NCBI RefSeq assembly: GCF_000964465.1
Contig: NZ_BANH01000043.1
Span: 1-64,000, forward strand
Length of the DNA stretch: 64,000 nucleotides
Source: Gluconobacter thailandicus F149-1 = NBRC 100600
GTDB lineage: Bacteria; Pseudomonadota; Alphaproteobacteria; Acetobacterales; Acetobacteraceae
Reading direction: 5' to 3'
Made by a program: the position numbers and the translations under genes. The notes under the pieces were generated by a model that made no database searches, had not been told where the DNA came from, and saw only the letters and a program-made list of their open reading frames with translations. Positions within the stretch are counted from its first letter, which is position 1, and every line of letters begins with the position of its first letter. This document shows, one piece after another, positions 2,347 to 13,972 of this stretch.

Positions 2347-3198
2347 TCAGTCTTTCAGGTAATTGCCGCCGCCATCGCCCTCTCGGACGTGGGCGTATCT
2401 TGTGGTGGTCTTCAGGTCGGAATGTCCCAAAGTTTGCTGGACGACATGCGCAGGCGCGCCATTGTCCAGGGCGTGTGAGGCGTGGGCGTGCCGGAACCAG
2501 TGCGCAGAGGCATCAGGCAATCCGGCACGCTTCGCCGCCCGCTTCACGAGGCGATGTGCCGCTCTCAAGTGAAGCGGGCTCCCATCGTGGCCGGGGACAA
2601 CAGGCGTATCGGGACGCCAGTCGTCTGCTCTCACAGCCACGATCTCTTTCCACAGCTTTGCGGGAACAAGCACATGCCGTGTCTTGTTCCCCTTGCCGAA
2701 CACGGAGGCCACGCCTCCCTGTTGACGCCGTGTCATGTCTCGCCATTTGAGGGCGCACATCTCTGAGATGCGCAGCCCCATGAAATACAGAACGCGAAGC
2801 GCGACCCGCTTTCGCGGGCAGGGCTCCTGCTCGATGATGCGCTTCACATCCTCTTCCGTGAGGATCCGCTCACTGAGACGATCGCGCCCGCGCTCCAGGC
2901 GAAGCGCTGCGCCGACGTCCACATCCAGAAAACCAACGCGGACCCCAAAGGAGAGAGCCGATTTGACGGATGCCAGCTTTCGGCGGCGCGTGGCGTCTGA
3001 TCCTGTGAGGCTGTCAAACCAGCCCTGCAGGTCATCCAGGACAACATCCGCAAGCGGCTTGCTTGTCCACTGGCGGAACGCGTCCACATCCGCACGATAG
3101 GCGCGGGACGTGTTCGCAGACCGGTTGTGGAGCCACATATTCACGAGGCGATCGTCATCAGAGATACGGGGCCTTTTCGCGTCCGCCGCTGGCGCCAT
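2347..3198 (-). CDS. Tyrosine recombinase (XerC/D-like)
   Basis: A complete 283-residue site-specific recombinase. The N-terminal SAM-like core-binding domain covers roughly residues 15-100. The catalytic domain carries R143 (GLRISE), K169, H233 and R236 (HWFRHAH), H259 (LGHSD) and the nucleophile Y268 (TRYAH), so all expected active-site residues are present. It is a second recombinase besides the integrase at 10,779 and resembles resolvase-like Xer proteins of plasmids and phages more than long phage integrases. A set of inverted 10-base repeats (3266-3350) lies immediately upstream and may be its binding sites. Confidence 0.85.
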   Translation of the reverse strand: MAPAADAKRPRISDDDRLVNMWLHNRSANTSRAYRADVDAFRQWTSKPLADVVLDDLQGWFDSLTGSDATRRRKLASVKSALSFGVRVGFLDVDVGAALRLERGRDRLSERILTEEDVKRIIEQEPCPRKRVALRVLYFMGLRISEMCALKWRDMTRRQQGGVASVFGKGNKTRHVLVPAKLWKEIVAVRADDWRPDTPVVPGHDGSPLHLRAAHRLVKRAAKRAGLPDASAHWFRHAHASHALDNGAPAHVVQQTLGHSDLKTTTRYAHVREGDGGGNYLKD

Positions 3199-6104: not shown

Positions 6105-7303
6105 GCGGCCTGAGCCTGCGGACGGTACCAGTCCAGATACGCGGCCCGTTCAACGGGGCAAGCGGGAAGGTCATGCTTCTTGGCCAACTCCGGCCATTCG
6201 CGCTTCACAGCTGAGTAGTCCCGCTGGAGATGAAAGGCTTCGCTCCAGATTTTCTGCGCCTTGGCATAAGCCTCCAGCGCACGGTCTTCCCAGTCTTCAC
6301 GAGGGGTAGGCTCTGGCACTGGGGTAGTCGAAACACCGGCTTGATGATCCGCCCAGAAGCGTTCGATAGGCTTGCGAAAGGCGCCCATTTTATAGGCTGT
6401 GTCGCCGTTCAGAGCCATTTTCTCGGTGTGCTGCTTTACAGCCTCGACCAGAACATCAGCCGGGATACCGTCCCGAAGGAAGCGACCACAAATGCTCTTG
6501 GCGAAACCGGCCTGACCGTCCGGGAGGCGTCCAATCTTGAGAACGCGAGCGACGGTCTGGGAGATCAGGGCTTCTGAAATCTCAAGAGCCGGTTTTCCGG
6601 TTTCGGTTTCAGCCGGTTTCGTAGAATTAGAATCAGAAGGGGATATATCTTTCTCTACTTCTAGATCTACGGGAAACCCAGAAACCGGTTTTGAAACCGA
6701 AACCCCGGAAACCAAAACCGTTTTTGAAAACTGGTTTTGGTTTTCAGTTTCGGAAACTGCCCCACCACTGATTGATGACAACAGTCGCATTTCACGCTGC
6801 TCGACGGCTTCGCGCTCACGGCGTTCCCGTGCCTGCTCGGATGTCTCGCCTTTGCGTGGGCGTCCACCTTTGGCGGCATTGGCACGAGAGGTCATCACTT
6901 TCACCGAGGCTTCTGGTGCGAACTCTCCGGCGTCCTGACGCTCCTGAAACTCGTCCAGGCGGCGTTGCTTTTCAGCGCGGGCCGCAGCGCGTTCTTCGCG
7001 GCGGATTTGACGTTCCACGAGGTGAGGGCTGTAGAGCGCGCCGTCTTCATCGCGCAGGATGAAGCGTGTGAACTCGAGTTCCGGCAGTACACGTTGCAGC
7101 ACATCGACATGCTCGCACGCCATCTGCGCCACTTGAGCGTCATCCAGTGCGCGGCCGCCAACGCGGAACACCACGTCACGAGCGGCTTTCAGTGCATCCA
7201 TGAGGGAGTGGAATACGCCCCGCTGTTCTGCAGGGAGCACCTTAAGGAACGCCATGGCCGGGATGTTGTCCCGATCAAACGTGGCAGGGATCTGGAGCGT
7301 CAT
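6101..7303 (-). CDS. Phage replication-type protein (initiator/helicase-loader candidate)
   Basis: A 400-residue protein with three parts. Residues about 1-110 form a compact start. A highly charged linker follows at 120-170 (REERAAARAEKQRRLDEFQE). Next comes a low-complexity Ser/Glu/Thr/Val stretch at about 185-230, then a C-terminal helical domain from about 240. The linker and placement after a CII-like gene recall lambdoid replication proteins (O-type). The DNA encoding the low-complexity part holds dense GGTTTC-type repeats around an AT-rich patch. Function is inferred from architecture and position, not from a recognised domain. Confidence 0.5.
   Translation of the reverse strand: MTLQIPATFDRDNIPAMAFLKVLPAEQRGVFHSLMDALKAARDVVFRVGGRALDDAQVAQMACEHVDVLQRVLPELEFTRFILRDEDGALYSPHLVERQIRREERAAARAEKQRRLDEFQERQDAGEFAPEASVKVMTSRANAAKGGRPRKGETSEQARERREREAVEQREMRLLSSISGGAVSETENQNQFSKTVLVSGVSVSKPVSGFPVDLEVEKDISPSDSNSTKPAETETGKPALEISEALISQTVARVLKIGRLPDGQAGFAKSICGRFLRDGIPADVLVEAVKQHTEKMALNGDTAYKMGAFRKPIERFWADHQAGVSTTPVPEPTPREDWEDRALEAYAKAQKIWSEAFHLQRDYSAVKREWPELAKKHDLPACPVERAAYLDWYRPQAQAA
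6588..6758. other. Candidate internal replication origin (repeats plus AT-rich core)
   Basis: Inside the replication-type gene, copies of CCGGTTT/CGGTTTC cluster at 6588-6620. Copies of GAAACCG and ACCGGTTTTG cluster at 6671-6758. They flank a 48-base AT-rich segment (6621-6668). This is the arrangement of iterons and an unwinding element seen in lambda-type origins that lie within the initiator gene. It could also be simple repeat expansion in a linker. Confidence 0.4.
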
Positions 7304-7749
7304 TTGGAAGCTCCTGACTTTTCCAATCCTCGAACGATCTTCAGAGCATGGTCCACCACACGACGCAGCTTGGTTAGCTCGTGGCCCAGTTTGTGGGCTT
7401 CTTCGACCGTGACAATACCGTCCGCCAGGACGCGGATTGTCATCTTCATCGTGTCGTTGGCCTTGTCGGCCACGTCTTCCATGATCTCGGCCACGTCGCC
7501 GTGTCCAAGCTGAACCGGTGTAAGGTGGTAGCCCAGTTCATGCGCCATCGCCTGCAAGATGAATGGCTCCTGGGCGAACTCATCCAGCACAATTGCCACG
7601 TCTACCGGGGCTGTAGTTGCTGAATTGCGGTTCTGGTATTCCGAGATCCGCGCACGGCCTACGCGTGTGACCGCCGCTGCGGCATCAATGCCGCCTATCG
7701 CGCGGACGGCCAATTGCGTGGCCGTCTTGAGGGCTGGGGCGTGATTCAT
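7300..7749 (-). CDS. CII-like phage regulatory protein
   Basis: A 149-residue protein. The N-terminal 70 residues (LAVRAIGGIDAAAAVTRVGR.RISEYQN..... then VDVAIVLDEFAQEPFILQAMAHELG) follow the pattern of phage CII/CP76-type regulators: a helix-turn-helix followed by a helical segment. The C-terminal half is helical and charged. It is the first gene of a leftward operon with the replication-type gene, overlapping it by four bases. Two starts are possible (7761 and 7749). The second has GGGTGAAG upstream. Confidence 0.6.
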   Translation of the reverse strand: MNHAPALKTATQLAVRAIGGIDAAAAVTRVGRARISEYQNRNSATTAPVDVAIVLDEFAQEPFILQAMAHELGYHLTPVQLGHGDVAEIMEDVADKANDTMKMTIRVLADGIVTVEEAHKLGHELTKLRRVVDHALKIVRGLEKSGASK

Positions 7750-7813
7750 GGCTTCACCCATGCGCCATCATCGGCCATCTTGCGCGCCTCACTATAAAAC
7801 GGAGCGACGACAC

Positions 7814-9180: not shown

Positions 9181-9233
9181 TGTGAGCATGTCTCACATAT
9201 TTCTGTCAAGTTTGTGCGTGAGCATGGCGCACA
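9181..9233. promoter_or_regulatory. Two operators between cro-like and cI-like genes
   Basis: The first site (9181-9197) is TGTGAG-CATGT-CTCACA, a perfect dyad extended to ATGTGAG/CTCACAT. The second (9217-9233) is CGTGAG-CATGG-CGCACA, matching 14 of 17 bases and set 36 bp away. They sit in the divergent promoter region. Similar sites flank the other side of the repressor gene (9626-9675). Confidence 0.75.
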
Positions 9234-9265
9234 CATCAGCTCGTCAAGACGTGCAAAATTTTCAC

Positions 9266-9613
9266 ATGGAAAACACGTCCAGAATCAGTGACAGGATCAA
9301 AAGTCTTCGCAAGAGACTTAATATGAAGCAGGCGGATTTTGTCGCCGGACTGAATATCTCAAGATCATATTTATCAAAACTTGAGACAGGAGAGGAGCAA
9401 CCAGGAAGGGATTTGCTCATCAGAATGTCACATGAATTCAACGTTTCGCTTGATTGGCTCACATCCGGTTCTGGAGATGCCGTTCCAGCACGAGCCATAA
9501 ATGAGCAAGAGGCACTCTTGCTTATGGCCTTTCGCTCACTGCCTCCCGACGAAGCCGAAACTCATTTAAAGCTCATGCTTCAGCGTGCGGACAAGGACAG
9601 ATTGGATCAGTAA
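9266..9613 (+). CDS. CI-like XRE-family repressor
   Basis: A 115-residue protein with an N-terminal helix-turn-helix (RISDRIKSLRKRLNMKQADF then LNISRSYLSKLETGEEQPG), typical of lambda-type repressors. A short C-terminal helical part (LPPDEAETHLKLMLQRADKD) is probably for dimerisation. It lacks the peptidase domain that makes lambda CI cleavable by RecA, so induction must work differently. The start at 9266 lies after two operators. Four copies of one dyad around the gene suggest it controls the leftward cro promoter and the rightward operon leading to the integrase. Confidence 0.8.
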   Translation: MENTSRISDRIKSLRKRLNMKQADFVAGLNISRSYLSKLETGEEQPGRDLLIRMSHEFNVSLDWLTSGSGDAVPARAINEQEALLLMAFRSLPPDEAETHLKLMLQRADKDRLDQ

Positions 9614-10543: not shown

Positions 10544-10782
10544 GTGGCCGTATCGTCCAGATGGCTCCCAAGGTGCTGGATATTGGGGATGCTGCGTCCT
10601 ATCTGGCGATGTCAGTTGGGACATTCAGGACGCATGTTCTTCCGCATGTGCGTCAGATTGCTTTGTCAGCGCGGCGTCGGGGCTATCTGGTGTCTGATCT
10701 GGATCGCTGGATTGATCGGCAGGCGGGTGGGGAAGGTGTGGCAGTCTCTGTTTCCGCCAATCCCTGGGACGCGATGAGTTGA
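10540..10782 (+). CDS. Excisionase/AlpA-like helix-turn-helix protein
   Basis: An 80-residue protein with a winged-helix MerR/excisionase-type pattern (LDIGDAASYLAMSVGTFRTHV ... YLVSDLDRWIDRQ). Such proteins direct excision or activate integrase genes. It sits directly before the integrase and its TGA stop overlaps the integrase TTG start, the usual xis-int layout. Confidence 0.7.
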   Translation: MSGRIVQMAPKVLDIGDAASYLAMSVGTFRTHVLPHVRQIALSARRRGYLVSDLDRWIDRQAGGEGVAVSVSANPWDAMS

Positions 10783-11813
10783 CCACGCTGCGGCTGCCTT
10801 ACATTCAGCGTTTCAAAGATCGGCACGGGAAGGTTCGGTATTACTTCCGCAAGAAGGGGCAAAAGAGCGTTCCGCTGCCAGATCTGCGCGATCCGGGCTT
10901 CATTGCTGCGTACCAGGCTGCTGTTTCTGGTGCTGAGCCACGAGGGCTCGATGCTGCAAAGGTTACGCCGACGGGAAGTCTGAGGGATGTAATTGAGTCT
11001 TGGTACGCGACGGCTCACTTCAAGACGCTCGAAGAGAGTACCAAGGCTGTGTACCGGCGCTTGCTGGAGCGTATGCGCGGCGCGGATTATGCTGCGAACC
11101 CGGTTTTACTGATGGAAAGCCGGCATGTCCGGATGATCATGGCCCGGCATAATGACTCGCCCACGACGGCCAATCGAATGTTGCGGCTGCTCTCAATGTT
11201 GATGGAGCACGCCATTCATATGGGGTGGGCGGAAAACAATCCGACGGCGGGTGTTCCGCGCATGAAGATCAAGAGTGGTGGCATCCATTCCTGGACGGAT
11301 GATGAGATCGCTCGATATGAGGCGCGCTGGCCAAGTGGCACGAGAGAGCGTCTGGCATTGGCTCTTCTGCTCTACACGGGGCAGCGCCGCAGTGATGTTG
11401 TGAAGATGGGGCCGCGCTCACTGACTGGTCATGGCATTCATGTCCGGCAGCAGAAGACTGGCACTGAGTTGGTTATTCCCATTCATGAGCAGTTGCGGGT
11501 CGAACTGGACCAGTGGCAGCCGAATGGAGCAGGGACGTTTCTGGCGACTGAGAAGGGGCGCCCAATGTCCGTGAACAACTTCTACAATCAGTTTGTCGAC
11601 TGGTGCCGTGAGGCGGGTCTTCCGCCTGGATGCAGTCCGCATGGTTTGCGCAAAGCTGCGGCCCGGAGGCTGGCAGAAGCTGGCTGCACAACGCACCAGA
11701 TCGCTGCCATTACAGGGCACCGTAGTTTGGCTGAAGTGGCGCGTTATACGCGGGCCGCTGAGCAGGTCAACCTGGCCCGCTCAGCGATGTCGCAATTACT
11801 GAAAAAAGATTAA
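10779..11813 (+). CDS. int: Phage integrase (tyrosine recombinase)
   Basis: A complete 344-residue integrase. A short N-terminal arm-binding-like part (IQRFKDRHGKVRYYFRKKG) is followed by a core-binding domain (about 65-165) and the catalytic domain. Active-site residues R203 (TGQRRSD), K226, H288 and R291 (HGLRK), H314 (GHRS) and Y323 (ARYTR) are present. It starts at TTG, coupled to the excisionase-like gene. It lies 2.1 kb from the tRNA-Arg gene, the presumed attachment site, with the sce7725/sce7726 pair in between. Confidence 0.9.
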   Translation: MTTLRLPYIQRFKDRHGKVRYYFRKKGQKSVPLPDLRDPGFIAAYQAAVSGAEPRGLDAAKVTPTGSLRDVIESWYATAHFKTLEESTKAVYRRLLERMRGADYAANPVLLMESRHVRMIMARHNDSPTTANRMLRLLSMLMEHAIHMGWAENNPTAGVPRMKIKSGGIHSWTDDEIARYEARWPSGTRERLALALLLYTGQRRSDVVKMGPRSLTGHGIHVRQQKTGTELVIPIHEQLRVELDQWQPNGAGTFLATEKGRPMSVNNFYNQFVDWCREAGLPPGCSPHGLRKAAARRLAEAGCTTHQIAAITGHRSLAEVARYTRAAEQVNLARSAMSQLLKKD

Positions 11814-12754
11814 GAGGAAAAGAAATCTGCGAGGGTTTCTATATGATGTTTCATGGATAGTTTTTTAACATATCCAAGACCAGGAAAATGTTCCTCTTGG
11901 TGCAATCTGCGAAACTCAATAATCGCAGAAGTCTCCAATATATGAGACCGACCTCTTTCTATCTTCTTAATTAATTCATCTAATGCTTGGGAAAATTTAC
12001 CCCCAGGATCGCTGGAAGTATCATTAGTAAATGACACAAAGTGGTATACATACATTACATCACCTTTATCTTTGTCGATAAAGGTGATGTGGATAGCGAC
12101 TGCGTAAGCCGGTCCACCTTTTTCTGAGTAACCATCACCTACCGTTAAAAAATCTCCAAACCCATCCATGCCGGATTTCTTATAGGTAAGGTGTAGATCT
12201 GAAAATTTCTCGCGCTCAATTTCAAGGTATTCAGCATTTTTTCGCTTTTCGAAGCCGTCACCAATTATTATACGCTTGGTTCCATCGTAGTATTTAATAT
12301 CTCGAGAGCTATTTTTTCTCTCAAAAAATATGCTTTTAATGCTTGGAGAGGATAATTTAATAAAATCCGATAATAATTTATGTTCCGAGAATCCATCATA
12401 TATAAATGAGGGGTTTTTATTGATGTTATCTGTATATAACTTTAAAGCATCTTGAATAGTATTTCTTTCAGTTAGGTATATTCCGGCAGAAATATTATTT
12501 TTTTCTTTATAGTCTCTGTTTAGAAGCTGGAATATGGCTTCTCCGTCCTTTTTATAATCGCCGTGTTTTGGGTTTACGATGACGATCGCCTCGCCATTGG
12601 CCTTACAGACCGTATCAAGGCAAGTTTTTAAAGGGGAAAGGGATTTTTTTACTGGTTCTATTATTGGAATAAATTTTGATTTTGCTAGTAATTGCGCAGT
12701 TTCTCGAACTGCTATTAGCTCATACTGTTTGCCACGGAAATATGGATAATACAT
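11810..12754 (-). CDS. sce7725 family protein
   Basis: A 314-residue protein matching the sce7725 family: it starts MYYPYFRGKQYELIAVRE, then FIPIIEPVK, and later has DGYSEKGGPAYAVAIHITF, DPGGKFSQAL and HFPGLGYVKKLS. The start resembles that of phage 'beta' family proteins. The biochemical role is not established. It follows the sce7726 gene after a 3-base gap, so the two are one operon. Low G+C compared with the integrase next to it suggests separate acquisition. It converges with the integrase gene, overlapping by four bases. A defence role is a hypothesis. Confidence 0.85.
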   Translation of the reverse strand: MYYPYFRGKQYELIAVRETAQLLAKSKFIPIIEPVKKSLSPLKTCLDTVCKANGEAIVIVNPKHGDYKKDGEAIFQLLNRDYKEKNNISAGIYLTERNTIQDALKLYTDNINKNPSFIYDGFSEHKLLSDFIKLSSPSIKSIFFERKNSSRDIKYYDGTKRIIIGDGFEKRKNAEYLEIEREKFSDLHLTYKKSGMDGFGDFLTVGDGYSEKGGPAYAVAIHITFIDKDKGDVMYVYHFVSFTNDTSSDPGGKFSQALDELIKKIERGRSHILETSAIIEFRRLHQEEHFPGLGYVKKLSMKHHIETLADFFSS

Positions 12755-12757
12755 TGC

Positions 12758-13645
12758 TCATGCCCACGTCATAGCCGTTTCAAGCGGCATTTCTATCGCC
12801 TTAATAAGGCGACTATAATCGGTGCGTCGCACCGGAACGGAAAGTGCCGCTGCATGCAGCGACACTGGAAGCCGCTTAACGAGTTCGCTTAACGGCGTGA
12901 GCGTACGAGTAAACTTGAGTGTTCGCACAAACTCGTCGTGTAGTGTAACAGAATCTATCTGAGAAAATAGTCTTCGAAATACCTCATATCTTTTTGTGTT
13001 GGGGACCTCCGGAATGGGTATATCTAAAGACTTTAGAATAAGCTTTATTTCATCAAAGCGAAGAGAATCAAAGGTTGTCAATGGACAGATTCGCGTAGGA
13101 TCGTTAATTCCGTTGCGAATTGTAGAAATTTGATTTCGCTTTGACAGGCATAAAATGCCAACATCTTCCGGGACCGATTTTATTATATTTTCAATGTGGG
13201 ATTCCGCTGTGATGACGTTTACGGTTGCAAATATTTTCTTGTAATTAATTATTTGATTCTCGAGTCTGCATAGAGAGTCACGTTCTGACTTTATCTCGTA
13301 AACGGTAGAAGTGCCGTTGAGTATTGCTGTATCAGCTTTGCATTTACCTGCTTTAAACTCATTGAGCATCACCGAGGTGCGCAGAGAATGTCTTCCAAGG
13401 AGGATTTTTTTCGTAATGGCAGCCCGATAAATATATTCATCCCGCTGGCCGGCTATCTGAAGAATTTTGAAGGCTCGGTCGAACGCATCGCCCACAGTTG
13501 TATTCTTGGAATCACATTCTTGTGCTGGTGTCAGGCGTAAAAGACGTGCGAAAAGCTCCGAATAGCCTCTTATGGCCATTTCTTGGAATACAGCCGAAGA
13601 GAACAATCGGGTCAGAGCCGATAATTCAGATACGCTCACTGTCAA
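12758..13645 (-). CDS. sce7726 family protein with nuclease-like motif
   Basis: A 295-residue protein of the sce7726 family, the regular partner of sce7725. Residues 95-140 contain D105 (KADTAIL), E117 and K119 (YEIKSERD) and Q131, which is the D...E-x-K...Q pattern of PD-(D/E)XK nucleases. The rest is helical and has no recognised domain. It is the first gene of the leftward pair. The gap up to the tRNA gene should hold its promoter. Nuclease activity is inferred from the motif alone. Confidence 0.8.
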   Translation of the reverse strand: MTVSVSELSALTRLFSSAVFQEMAIRGYSELFARLLRLTPAQECDSKNTTVGDAFDRAFKILQIAGQRDEYIYRAAITKKILLGRHSLRTSVMLNEFKAGKCKADTAILNGTSTVYEIKSERDSLCRLENQIINYKKIFATVNVITAESHIENIIKSVPEDVGILCLSKRNQISTIRNGINDPTRICPLTTFDSLRFDEIKLILKSLDIPIPEVPNTKRYEVFRRLFSQIDSVTLHDEFVRTLKFTRTLTPLSELVKRLPVSLHAAALSVPVRRTDYSRLIKAIEMPLETAMTWA

Positions 13646-13825
13646 TTTTTCGCTCCGTCTCTCTCAGACTTAAATTTTACCCGGCAGCGTTCTGTTAGCG
13701 TAGATGCCATCCTGATGGAAAACTGACTTTTAAGAATAAACTTACCACTAGCGTAATCGGGTAACACTCCATCATAAACTTCTTTGGGGTTCGCCTTTAT
13801 CACGTCCCTTAGAAAGGCAAGTGAA

Positions 13826-13855: not shown

Positions 13856-13895
13856 TGCCAGAAAACTGGCGGAAAATAGCGATTTCTGAGATTGG

Positions 13896-13972
13896 TGGTG
13901 GACCCGACGCGATTCGAACGCGTGACCTTTGCCTTCGGAGGGCAACGCTCTATCCAGCTGAGCTACGGGTCC
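13896..13972 (-). tRNA. tRNA-Arg (anticodon CCG)
   Basis: The minus strand folds as a full cloverleaf: acceptor GGACCCG with CGGGTCC, D-arm AGCTCAGCTGGATAGAGC, anticodon arm TTGCC-CTCCGAA-GGCAA with anticodon CCG, TpsiC arm with GTTCGAATC, and an encoded CCA end. Its 3' end faces the phage-like element, so it is the likely integration site. Confidence 0.95.

What the first reader, a model, noticed from the sequence alone, without database searches (positions are those of the whole stretch)
11810..13645. sce7726-sce7725 operon as cargo between integrase and tRNA attachment site
The two leftward genes are AT-rich unlike the int gene, are separated by three bases, and occupy the spot between int and the tRNA where mobile elements carry exchangeable cargo. 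The sce7726 protein has a D105...E117-x-K119...Q131 nuclease-like motif, and the sce7725 start resembles phage 'beta' family proteins. Presence of a putative nuclease plus partner of unknown role in this slot suggests an undescribed phage-defence or superinfection-exclusion system. Motif and position are seen; defence is inference.
Basis: partly seen in the sequence, partly recalled or inferred. Interest (0 to 1): 0.75.

Follow-up and report, generated by a model that had tools for sequence, protein, structure and literature searches.

The report
Prophage defence cassette missing its effector
A prophage in a bacterium of the acetic-acid-bacteria family carries, in an exchangeable slot beside its integration site, two genes of what is elsewhere a three-gene cassette related to a known anti-phage system; the third gene, a probable NAD-consuming suicide enzyme, is missing here.

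Summary
Window 11810-13645 carries an intact, AT-rich sce7726-sce7725 operon between a prophage-type integrase and tRNA-Arg; a 30-bp att repeat bounds the element. Of six congeneric elements with the same integrase, four have the slot empty and two hold other cargo, one of them a beta-cII locus of the P4 gop-beta-cII kind.

The pair is not undescribed. sce7726 is of the P4 cII family, with a predicted PD-(D/E)XK fold. sce7725 is a predicted TIM barrel whose best viral structural match is a Pfam Beta_protein. Gop-beta-cII is a published defence system.

New is the third gene: in 80 of 80 relatives examined (the best of 498), a RES-domain gene or its pieces follow directly. RES enzymes consume or modify NAD. 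The window and its draft genome lack it (search with positive controls), and the nearest relative has it split by transposase genes.

Best reading: a three-gene nuclease/TIM-barrel/RES abortive-infection module, partly homologous to gop-beta-cII; the window copy has lost the effector, keeps the nuclease motif and has an unusually diverged sce7725. Defence is inference. A 2024 paper says no RES toxin-antitoxin system had been implicated in immunity; the intact cassette makes this testable.

The parts
12758..13645 (-). sce7726 family gene (P4 cII-like; predicted PD-(D/E)XK nuclease, core about residues 67-184, D105/E117/K119)
11810..12754 (-). sce7725 family gene (predicted TIM barrel, structural relative of Beta_protein PF14350)
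11792..13822 (.). cargo insert: DNA similarity to congeneric elements stops at about 11791 (last codons of int) and resumes at 13823
10779..11813 (+). tyrosine-recombinase integrase of the element
13881..13910 (.). att core, 30 bp, repeated exactly at G000:C168:316-345, taken as the other end of the element
13896..13972 (-). tRNA-Arg(ccg), integration target
9182..9613 (+). phage-type transcriptional repressor of the element (context)
7300..7761 (-). gene matching a phage CII-like transcriptional activator family, phrog_101 (context; a different protein from P4 cII)

Best explanation
The pair is an effector-stripped derivative of a three-gene module, sce7726 - sce7725 - RES, carried as exchangeable cargo between int and the tRNA attachment site of a prophage. 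In the intact module the likely mechanism (inferred) is this. The PD-(D/E)XK protein (sce7726) and the TIM-barrel protein (sce7725) form the sensing and holding part. Infection releases the RES protein, which by family consumes or modifies NAD, and this aborts the infection, much as gop is thought to be held by beta in P4. In the window the RES gene is gone right at the end of sce7725. Shown: both frames are intact, the nuclease motif is kept, the effector was not found, and the slot has different contents in sister elements. Inferred: the copy can no longer run the suicide response, and whatever it still does rests on the nuclease and the barrel protein.
For: A RES-family gene or its pieces follow sce7725 in 80 of 80 GTDB loci examined (6 of the 80 have no piece of 300 aa) and in 6 of 6 other genomes found by family search (L010, L011, L012, L148, L149, L190; at least four nearly repeat loci among the 80). 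The trio's DNA is also in 18 of 5,426 complete E. coli genomes. RES was not found in the window (best E 0.025 and 0.034) or in the genome, while the same query finds it in 3 of 3 control genomes (E 3e-193 to 2.7e-77). The window's sce7725 nests among RES-bearing ones, next to L013 (support 94/88), where transposase genes split RES. Window sce7725 has end branch 1.3 against a median of 0.21 and breaks 7 of 85 strongly conserved columns (79 others: median 1, most 6), while sce7726 breaks 2 of 57 (76 others: median 1, most 7). The slot holds a beta-cII locus in a congener (L187). The 3 E. coli loci inspected of 18 lie near named defence genes.
Against: I found no experiment showing that any sce7726-sce7725-RES cassette stops phage. 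The 80 loci are the best 80 of 498 by similarity, so RES may be rarer in the rest; in some more divergent loci it was not found (L104, L151; Bacillota types L007, L107, L108, L159). RES stands as a full annotated gene behind an IS-cut sce7725 end on one plasmid (L161), which speaks against strict toxin-antitoxin dependence. RES proteins differ in activity and one (GndR) is reported without canonical function (PMC12457610, passages). The long sce7725 branch could be AT-rich drift, and its place in the tree is flagged unsure. Sequence profiles alone do not join sce7725 to Beta (no hit). The genome is a 191-contig draft.
Confidence: 0.55

Rival explanations
1. A working two-gene defence or superinfection-exclusion system: the PD-(D/E)XK nuclease, guided by the TIM-barrel protein, attacks incoming phage DNA directly and needs no RES.
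For: Both frames open and nuclease residues kept. Two-gene forms recur in phage-related elements: P4-like satellite L151 (4 of 5,426 E. coli genomes) and prophage-like contig L104. P4-type cII-beta pairs without an obvious gop-like gene lie in Gordonia phage Powerball and Rac-SA53 (the gop profile was not run on their neighbours).
Against: RES or its pieces in 80 of 80 near relatives examined; sce7725 of the window shows more changes at conserved columns than any of 79 relatives; in PD-lambda-2 and P4 a toxin is part of the system.
Confidence: 0.18
2. Anti-defence: the prophage-borne pair without effector acts as a spare holder (antitoxin) that keeps a resident RES-armed cassette of the host silent, protecting the prophage or its siblings.
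For: Effector-less pairs recur on phage-related elements (L104, L151; truncated forms on viral contigs L003 and L004). RES-bearing cassettes sit on other mobile elements such as an ICE and plasmids.
Against: No RES homologue found in this genome, and 2 of 396 other genomes of its family have sce7725 at all; viral contigs L001, L002, L093 and L102 keep RES; the window's sce7725 is at most 57% identical to the others aligned.
Confidence: 0.12
3. Dead remnant: the cassette lost its effector by deletion and the two leftover genes are drifting passengers.
For: Longest end branch among rows of the main clade (1.3) and most conserved-site changes for sce7725. RES is also in pieces in L013, L017 and L057 and marked frameshifted in L154 (draft-assembly errors not excluded for L017 and L057).
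Against: Both frames are full length with no stop, sce7726 is no more deviant than its relatives and keeps D105, E117 and K119, and the loss leaves sce7725 at the family's usual length (314 aa; relatives listed with full frames have 310-318 aa).
Confidence: 0.3

Closest known systems
gop-beta-cII of satellite phage P4 (Rousset et al. 2022, PMC9122126; passages read)
   Same: sce7726 and P4 cII are one family (tblastn 34%; NC_001609 cII is annotated sce7726 family; PADLOC 'cll' E 1.1e-19, taken as its cII model). sce7725 resembles Beta_protein by predicted fold. Both sit beside int on an integrating element. A beta-cII locus occupies the same slot in a congener (L187).
   Different: sce7725 does not match the Beta profiles; the genes are co-directional, whereas P4 cII is convergent to gop-beta; the usual third gene is RES, not gop; the window has neither.
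PD-lambda-2 (Vassallo et al. 2022, PMC9519451; passages read)
   Same: Its C component is related to a P4 antitoxin and is needed for defence against lambda-vir; P4 beta and Powerball gp33 match its C model.
   Different: Has HigB-like and Xre-peptidase components and, in the passages read, no sce7726.
RES-Xre toxin-antitoxin modules (NatR-NatT, MbcT, ParT; PMC11535050 and PMC12457610, passages read)
   Different: About 340 aa with a Cys-rich N-terminal part; the cassette has no Xre antitoxin; far below the Res_ParT cut-off (13 of 110 bits in one of three tested, none in the others); absent from the window.
Zn-ribbon - HEPN/RES-NTD1 - RES proteins (HEPN survey of 2013, PMC3710099, passage read)
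   Same: That survey of conflict systems lists a HEPN/RES-NTD1 domain fused to RES, some with a further N-terminal Zn ribbon, which fits the third gene (weak HEPN_RES_NTD1 match in one of three; five invariant cysteines).
   Different: In the passage read no link to sce7725/sce7726 is made; RES is absent from the window.
sce7726-sce7725-RES on an IME of Pseudomonas aeruginosa PA_HN002 (PMC9394441, passages read)
   Same: The same three annotations named together on one mobile element.
   Different: Annotation only, no function proposed in the passages read; RES present there.

Membership tests
NCBIfam sce7725 / sce7726 families | profile score over the curated cut-off | tested here: met
   350.8 bits (cut-off 60) and 182.4 bits (cut-off 70)
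three-gene sce7726-sce7725-RES cassette (described here) | RES gene directly after sce7725 | tested here: not met
   RES or its pieces in 80 of 80 relatives examined; not found in window or genome
gop-beta-cII | cII-family protein | tested here: met
   P4 cII found by tblastn, 34% over 110 residues, E 2e-6; PADLOC cll 69.3 bits, E 1.1e-19
gop-beta-cII | Beta protein by sequence profile | tested here: not met
   no PF14350 or PADLOC beta hit at E up to 1; hhalign prob 37%
gop-beta-cII | Beta protein by fold | tested here: inconclusive
   best BFVD match of the sce7725 model is Powerball gp33, E 2.8e-8, TM 0.68 by query and 0.58 by target, 11% identity, a PF14350 member; P4 beta itself was not modelled
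gop-beta-cII | gop toxin next to beta | tested here: not met
   int stop overlaps the sce7725 stop; no ORF of 60 aa or more lies wholly between sce7726 and the tRNA
gop-beta-cII | protection against lambda and P1 | not testable with these tools
   needs plating tests
PD-(D/E)XK nuclease superfamily | D...ExK signature conserved in the family | tested here: met
   D105, E117, K119, Q131 invariant in 83 sequences
PD-(D/E)XK nuclease superfamily | fold | tested here: met
PD-(D/E)XK nuclease superfamily | nuclease activity | not testable with these tools
   needs purified protein
PD-lambda-2 | HigB-like gene and Xre-peptidase gene with the Beta-like third gene | tested here: not met
   the insert 11792-13822 holds only the two sce genes
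RES-Xre toxin-antitoxin | RES toxin plus Xre/MbcA/ParS antitoxin in the insert | tested here: not met
   no RES found in the window or genome; only two genes in the insert, neither with such a match

The most novel reading that the evidence does not exclude
cII-type nuclease plus beta-type TIM barrel is a conserved immune core with swappable effectors (gop or other small membrane proteins, HigB/peptidase modules, RES). The RES version would be the first immune system shown to act through a RES enzyme. Effector-less pairs carried by prophages and satellites, as in this window, would be counter-defence modules that disarm the effector-bearing cassettes of rival elements.
Probability: 0.12. Interest if true: 0.82.

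Novelty: new variant of a known kind. Interest (0 to 1): 0.58.

Why it matters
A 2024 paper on the RES toxin NatT states that no RES toxin-antitoxin system had been implicated in immunity and that the role of the family is unresolved (PMC11535050, passages). An in-silico survey of 2022 already counts RES domains among those used by prokaryotic immune systems and suggests phage-borne RES modules may inhibit superinfecting phages (PMC9503650, passages), so the idea exists but needs a testable case. A three-gene cassette, found across several phyla (tree), that couples RES to two relatives of a proven anti-phage system is such a case. Copies with and without the effector, and beta-cII and sce7726-sce7725 loci in the same integration slot of sister elements, give a natural comparison of what each part does.

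Tried and rejected
Rejected: 'undescribed family' (one search names P4 cII as sce7726; one search gives the published system). Rejected: RES elsewhere in the window or draft genome (the first empty answer came with a warning that it had no control, so I repeated it with three genomes known to hold RES: found in 3 of 3, not in G000). The 946 bp after the L151 pair hold no RES homologue (best E 0.99). PDB sequence searches gave nothing useful: sce7726 profile only CagY at E 0.0033, sce7725 none, RES protein nothing better than E 0.66. Profile comparison to P4 beta was weak (prob 13.6%, then 37.1%). The viral scan with single-sequence sce7726 found none.

Literature: searches list no functional study of sce7725/sce7726 with RES that I could recognise; the library holds open-licence PMC papers only, and most listed papers were not opened. 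Opened by passages: PMC9122126, PMC9394441, PMC13414232, PMC12457778, PMC9519451, PMC11535050, PMC3710099, PMC9503650, PMC12457610.

Not done: a controlled test of enrichment near defence genes or tRNAs. Only raw counts exist: tyrosine integrase found in the held flanks of 14 of 80 loci, 10 of them within 5 kb; a tRNA in 18 of 52 loci with at least 19 kb held; no background was computed. Dropped rows: divergent rows (L087, L093, L102-L105, L107, L108) were left out; pieces under 330 aa were left out of the RES alignment (73 of 83 kept); six loci have no RES piece of 300 aa (L013, L017, L019, L022, L051, L057), some because the contig ends there. Pfam RES was tested on four proteins (L014, L006, L039; L008); the rest of the 80 are RES by clustering. 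Of 14 integrase matches in the genus (the window's own and 13 others), the six of 73-98% identity were inspected; seven of 38-53% were not. An empty-site query was built but not searched; the comparison replaced it.
Full report
WHAT IS THERE. The integrase of the element (10779-11813, +) ends in the stop of sce7725 (11810-12754, -), which is preceded by sce7726 (12758-13645, -); tRNA-Arg(ccg) follows at 13896-13972. The two genes are AT-rich (GC 0.359 and 0.439; int 0.578). NCBIfam names both over cut-off; Pfam names neither; PADLOC finds its model 'cll' in sce7726 (E 1.1e-19) and nothing in sce7725. I take 'cll' as P4 cII: PADLOC's gop and beta models match P4's own proteins, and P4 cII is annotated sce7726 family.

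THE ELEMENT. A 30-bp stretch at the tRNA 3' end (13881-13910) recurs exactly near the start of contig C168 (316-345) of the same genome. There 315 bp of AT-rich DNA (GC 0.41) meet DNA of ordinary GC (0.57) whose first long ORF reads by eye as an MscS-like channel. This fits an element integrated at tRNA-Arg with the cargo between int and att. Phage-type repressors, a CII-like activator, a DNA methyltransferase and a second integrase lie to the left, so it is most likely a prophage with its remaining parts on other contigs; I did not look for its structural genes. The host family is Acetobacteraceae by inference: L149, from a genome marked same family as G000, has the same sce7725 as L082, titled Acetobacteraceae.

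THE SLOT IS EXCHANGEABLE. The integrase has 14 matches at E <= 1e-60 in 11 of 26 genomes of the genus, its own included. The six of 73-98% identity in other genomes were inspected; all lie at tRNA-Arg(ccg). In four (L185, L186, L188, L189) no separate gene lies between int and the tRNA: the slot is empty. In L184 (98% int) it holds a SocA/Panacea-domain gene (E 2e-23) and a 138-aa gene with one hydrophobic stretch. There, near-copies of the int-end/att sequence lie on both sides of the cargo (47 bp at 89%; sequences). In L187 (91% int) it holds four genes: a 147-aa protein with two hydrophobic stretches and no PADLOC gop match; an IrrE-type peptidase (M78, E 2.9e-19; PADLOC capP E 9.7e-30, PD-Lambda-2_B E 1.9e-7); a Beta protein (PF14350 E 5.9e-52; PADLOC beta E 6.5e-47); and a convergent cII (PADLOC cll E 8.9e-20). 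So in 7 elements the slot is empty in 4 and has three different contents in 3, two of them of beta/cII kinship. In the window the insert spans about 11792-13822.

THE MISSING THIRD GENE. A scan of GTDB genomes with the sce7725 alignment found 498 relatives; the best 80 were kept. All 80 have sce7726 next upstream: gaps of -1 to 10 bases in 77, -43 in one, and 182 and 215 in two whose sce7726 frame stops early. All 80 have one more family next downstream on the same strand, starting a median of 3 bases after the sce7725 stop (-92 to 215). Where tested it is a RES-domain protein of about 340 aa (PF08808 in L014, L039, L006 and, farther off, L008). One of three tested shows a weak HEPN/RES N-terminal match (23.8 bits, cut-off 27.4), and none of three has a PADLOC hit. 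A 2013 survey of conflict systems lists such HEPN/RES-NTD1-RES proteins, some with a Zn ribbon (PMC3710099, passage). In 73 full-length copies five N-terminal cysteines and a set of RES-domain residues are invariant. The trio is on plasmids of Shinella, Pseudorhizobium, Rhizobium and Moraxella, on a Salmonella houtenae ICE at tRNA-Leu and, as DNA, in 18 of 5,426 E. coli genomes. Three of those 18 loci were read; near them lie genes named KwaB-like, Pycsar effector, caspase, TIR, BREX or AbiE.

Family searches over smaller draws found sce7725 in 1 of 60, 4 of 398, 3 of 397 and 2 of 385 genomes, own genome included each time, and in 1 of 48 of the class of G073, itself one of those. The six other genomes all have RES. 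RES was not found in the window (best E 0.025; 0.034) or in the draft genome, while the same query finds it in three control genomes.

HOW THE WINDOW COPY DIFFERS. In a 95-row tree the window's sce7725 lies among RES-bearing copies, next to L013 of Paludibacterium (94/88, not starred), with an end branch of 1.3 (median 0.21; the program warns that long rows are unsure). In L013 transposase genes split RES while the pair is whole (transposases named by eye). RES is also in pieces in L017 and L057 (assembly errors possible) and marked frameshifted in E. coli L154. Window sce7725 departs at 7 of 85 columns that are at least 95% conserved in 79 relatives (leave-one-out median 1, most 6), among them H119Y, Y152D and P247S, each invariant in those 79. 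sce7726 departs at 2 of 57 (76 relatives, median 1, most 7). So the nuclease looks kept and the barrel protein unusually changed. Loss of the partner would predict this, but drift cannot be excluded.

KNOWN RELATIVES. P4 carries gop, beta and cII beside int. Rousset et al. report that gop-beta-cII protects against lambda and P1, with gop toxic without beta (PMC9122126, passages). PD-lambda-2 has a third component related to a P4 antitoxin that is required for defence though not for neutralising the toxin (PMC9519451, passages). Beta-type barrels thus recur beside different toxins; RES would be another. The window copy is not filed as gop-beta-cII: Beta by profile and gop were tested and not met.

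EFFECTOR-LESS COPIES ELSEWHERE. E. coli P4-like satellite L151 (4 of 5,426 genomes; alpha - pair - int) and prophage-like contig L104 have pairs without a detectable RES. Viral contigs L003 and L004 have sce7726 with a cut sce7725, near genes that read by eye as terminases. Bacillota copies (L007, L107, L108, L159) have a different gene upstream and no RES found. But viral contigs L001, L002, L093 with its near-copies, and L102 keep RES. So there is a tendency at most, with no controlled count.

HOW IT MOST LIKELY WORKS. Shown: gene order, conservation, predicted folds, no effector found, different slot contents. By family knowledge: RES enzymes consume or modify NAD, NatT and MbcT as NAD+ phosphorylases and others as transferases or hydrolases (PMC11535050, PMC12457610, passages). 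Inferred: sce7726 and sce7725 sense infection and hold RES in check; RES executes abortive infection; the window copy cannot do so and is a fading leftover, a nuclease-only device or a silencer of armed cassettes. A full RES gene behind an IS-cut sce7725 end on plasmid L161 is a result against a simple toxin-antitoxin picture.

NOVELTY. The families and the P4 system are known. In what I could search and open, the sce7726-sce7725-RES trio appears only as annotation (PMC9394441; searches), and RES in immunity has been proposed in silico (PMC9503650, passages) but, by a 2024 statement, not shown. I rate it a new variant of a known kind. That DefenseFinder lists gop-beta-cII is recalled, not checked.

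Noticed in passing
L187:2047-4648 (G003:C1): Small hydrophobic protein, IrrE-type peptidase, Beta protein and convergent cII in the same int-tRNA slot of a congeneric element: looks like a mix of gop-beta-cII and PD-lambda-2 parts.
   Followed up: partly
L184:2052-3400 (G013:C1): SocA/Panacea gene and a small gene in the same slot, with near-copies of the int-end/att sequence on both sides, as if added by recombination at att.
   Followed up: partly
L007:6727-8378, L107:3603-5159, L159:6306-7954: In Bacillota, sce7725 relatives follow a different gene (an ...ExK... stretch looks nuclease-like by eye) with no Pfam name in the two tested and no RES found downstream: perhaps a partner swap.
   Followed up: no
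L003:9103-10384 and L004:9086-10462: Two viral contigs carry a full sce7726 followed by a sce7725 cut to its N-terminal part, upstream of genes that read by eye as terminases.
   Followed up: no
L161:5202-7202 (Glutamicibacter plasmid pQL1): A full annotated RES gene stands behind the last codons of sce7725, the rest being cut off by IS6100; RES may not be lethal alone there, or may be silent.
   Followed up: no
L167:4770-6582 (Gordonia phage Powerball) and L169:4004-5639 (Rac-SA53): Phage genomes with convergent cII-like and Beta genes and no obvious gop-like gene beside them (gop profile not run).
   Followed up: partly
window 2347-3198: A second integrase-like gene (phrog_1, E 2.5e-43) on the minus strand to the left of the main int.
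   Followed up: no
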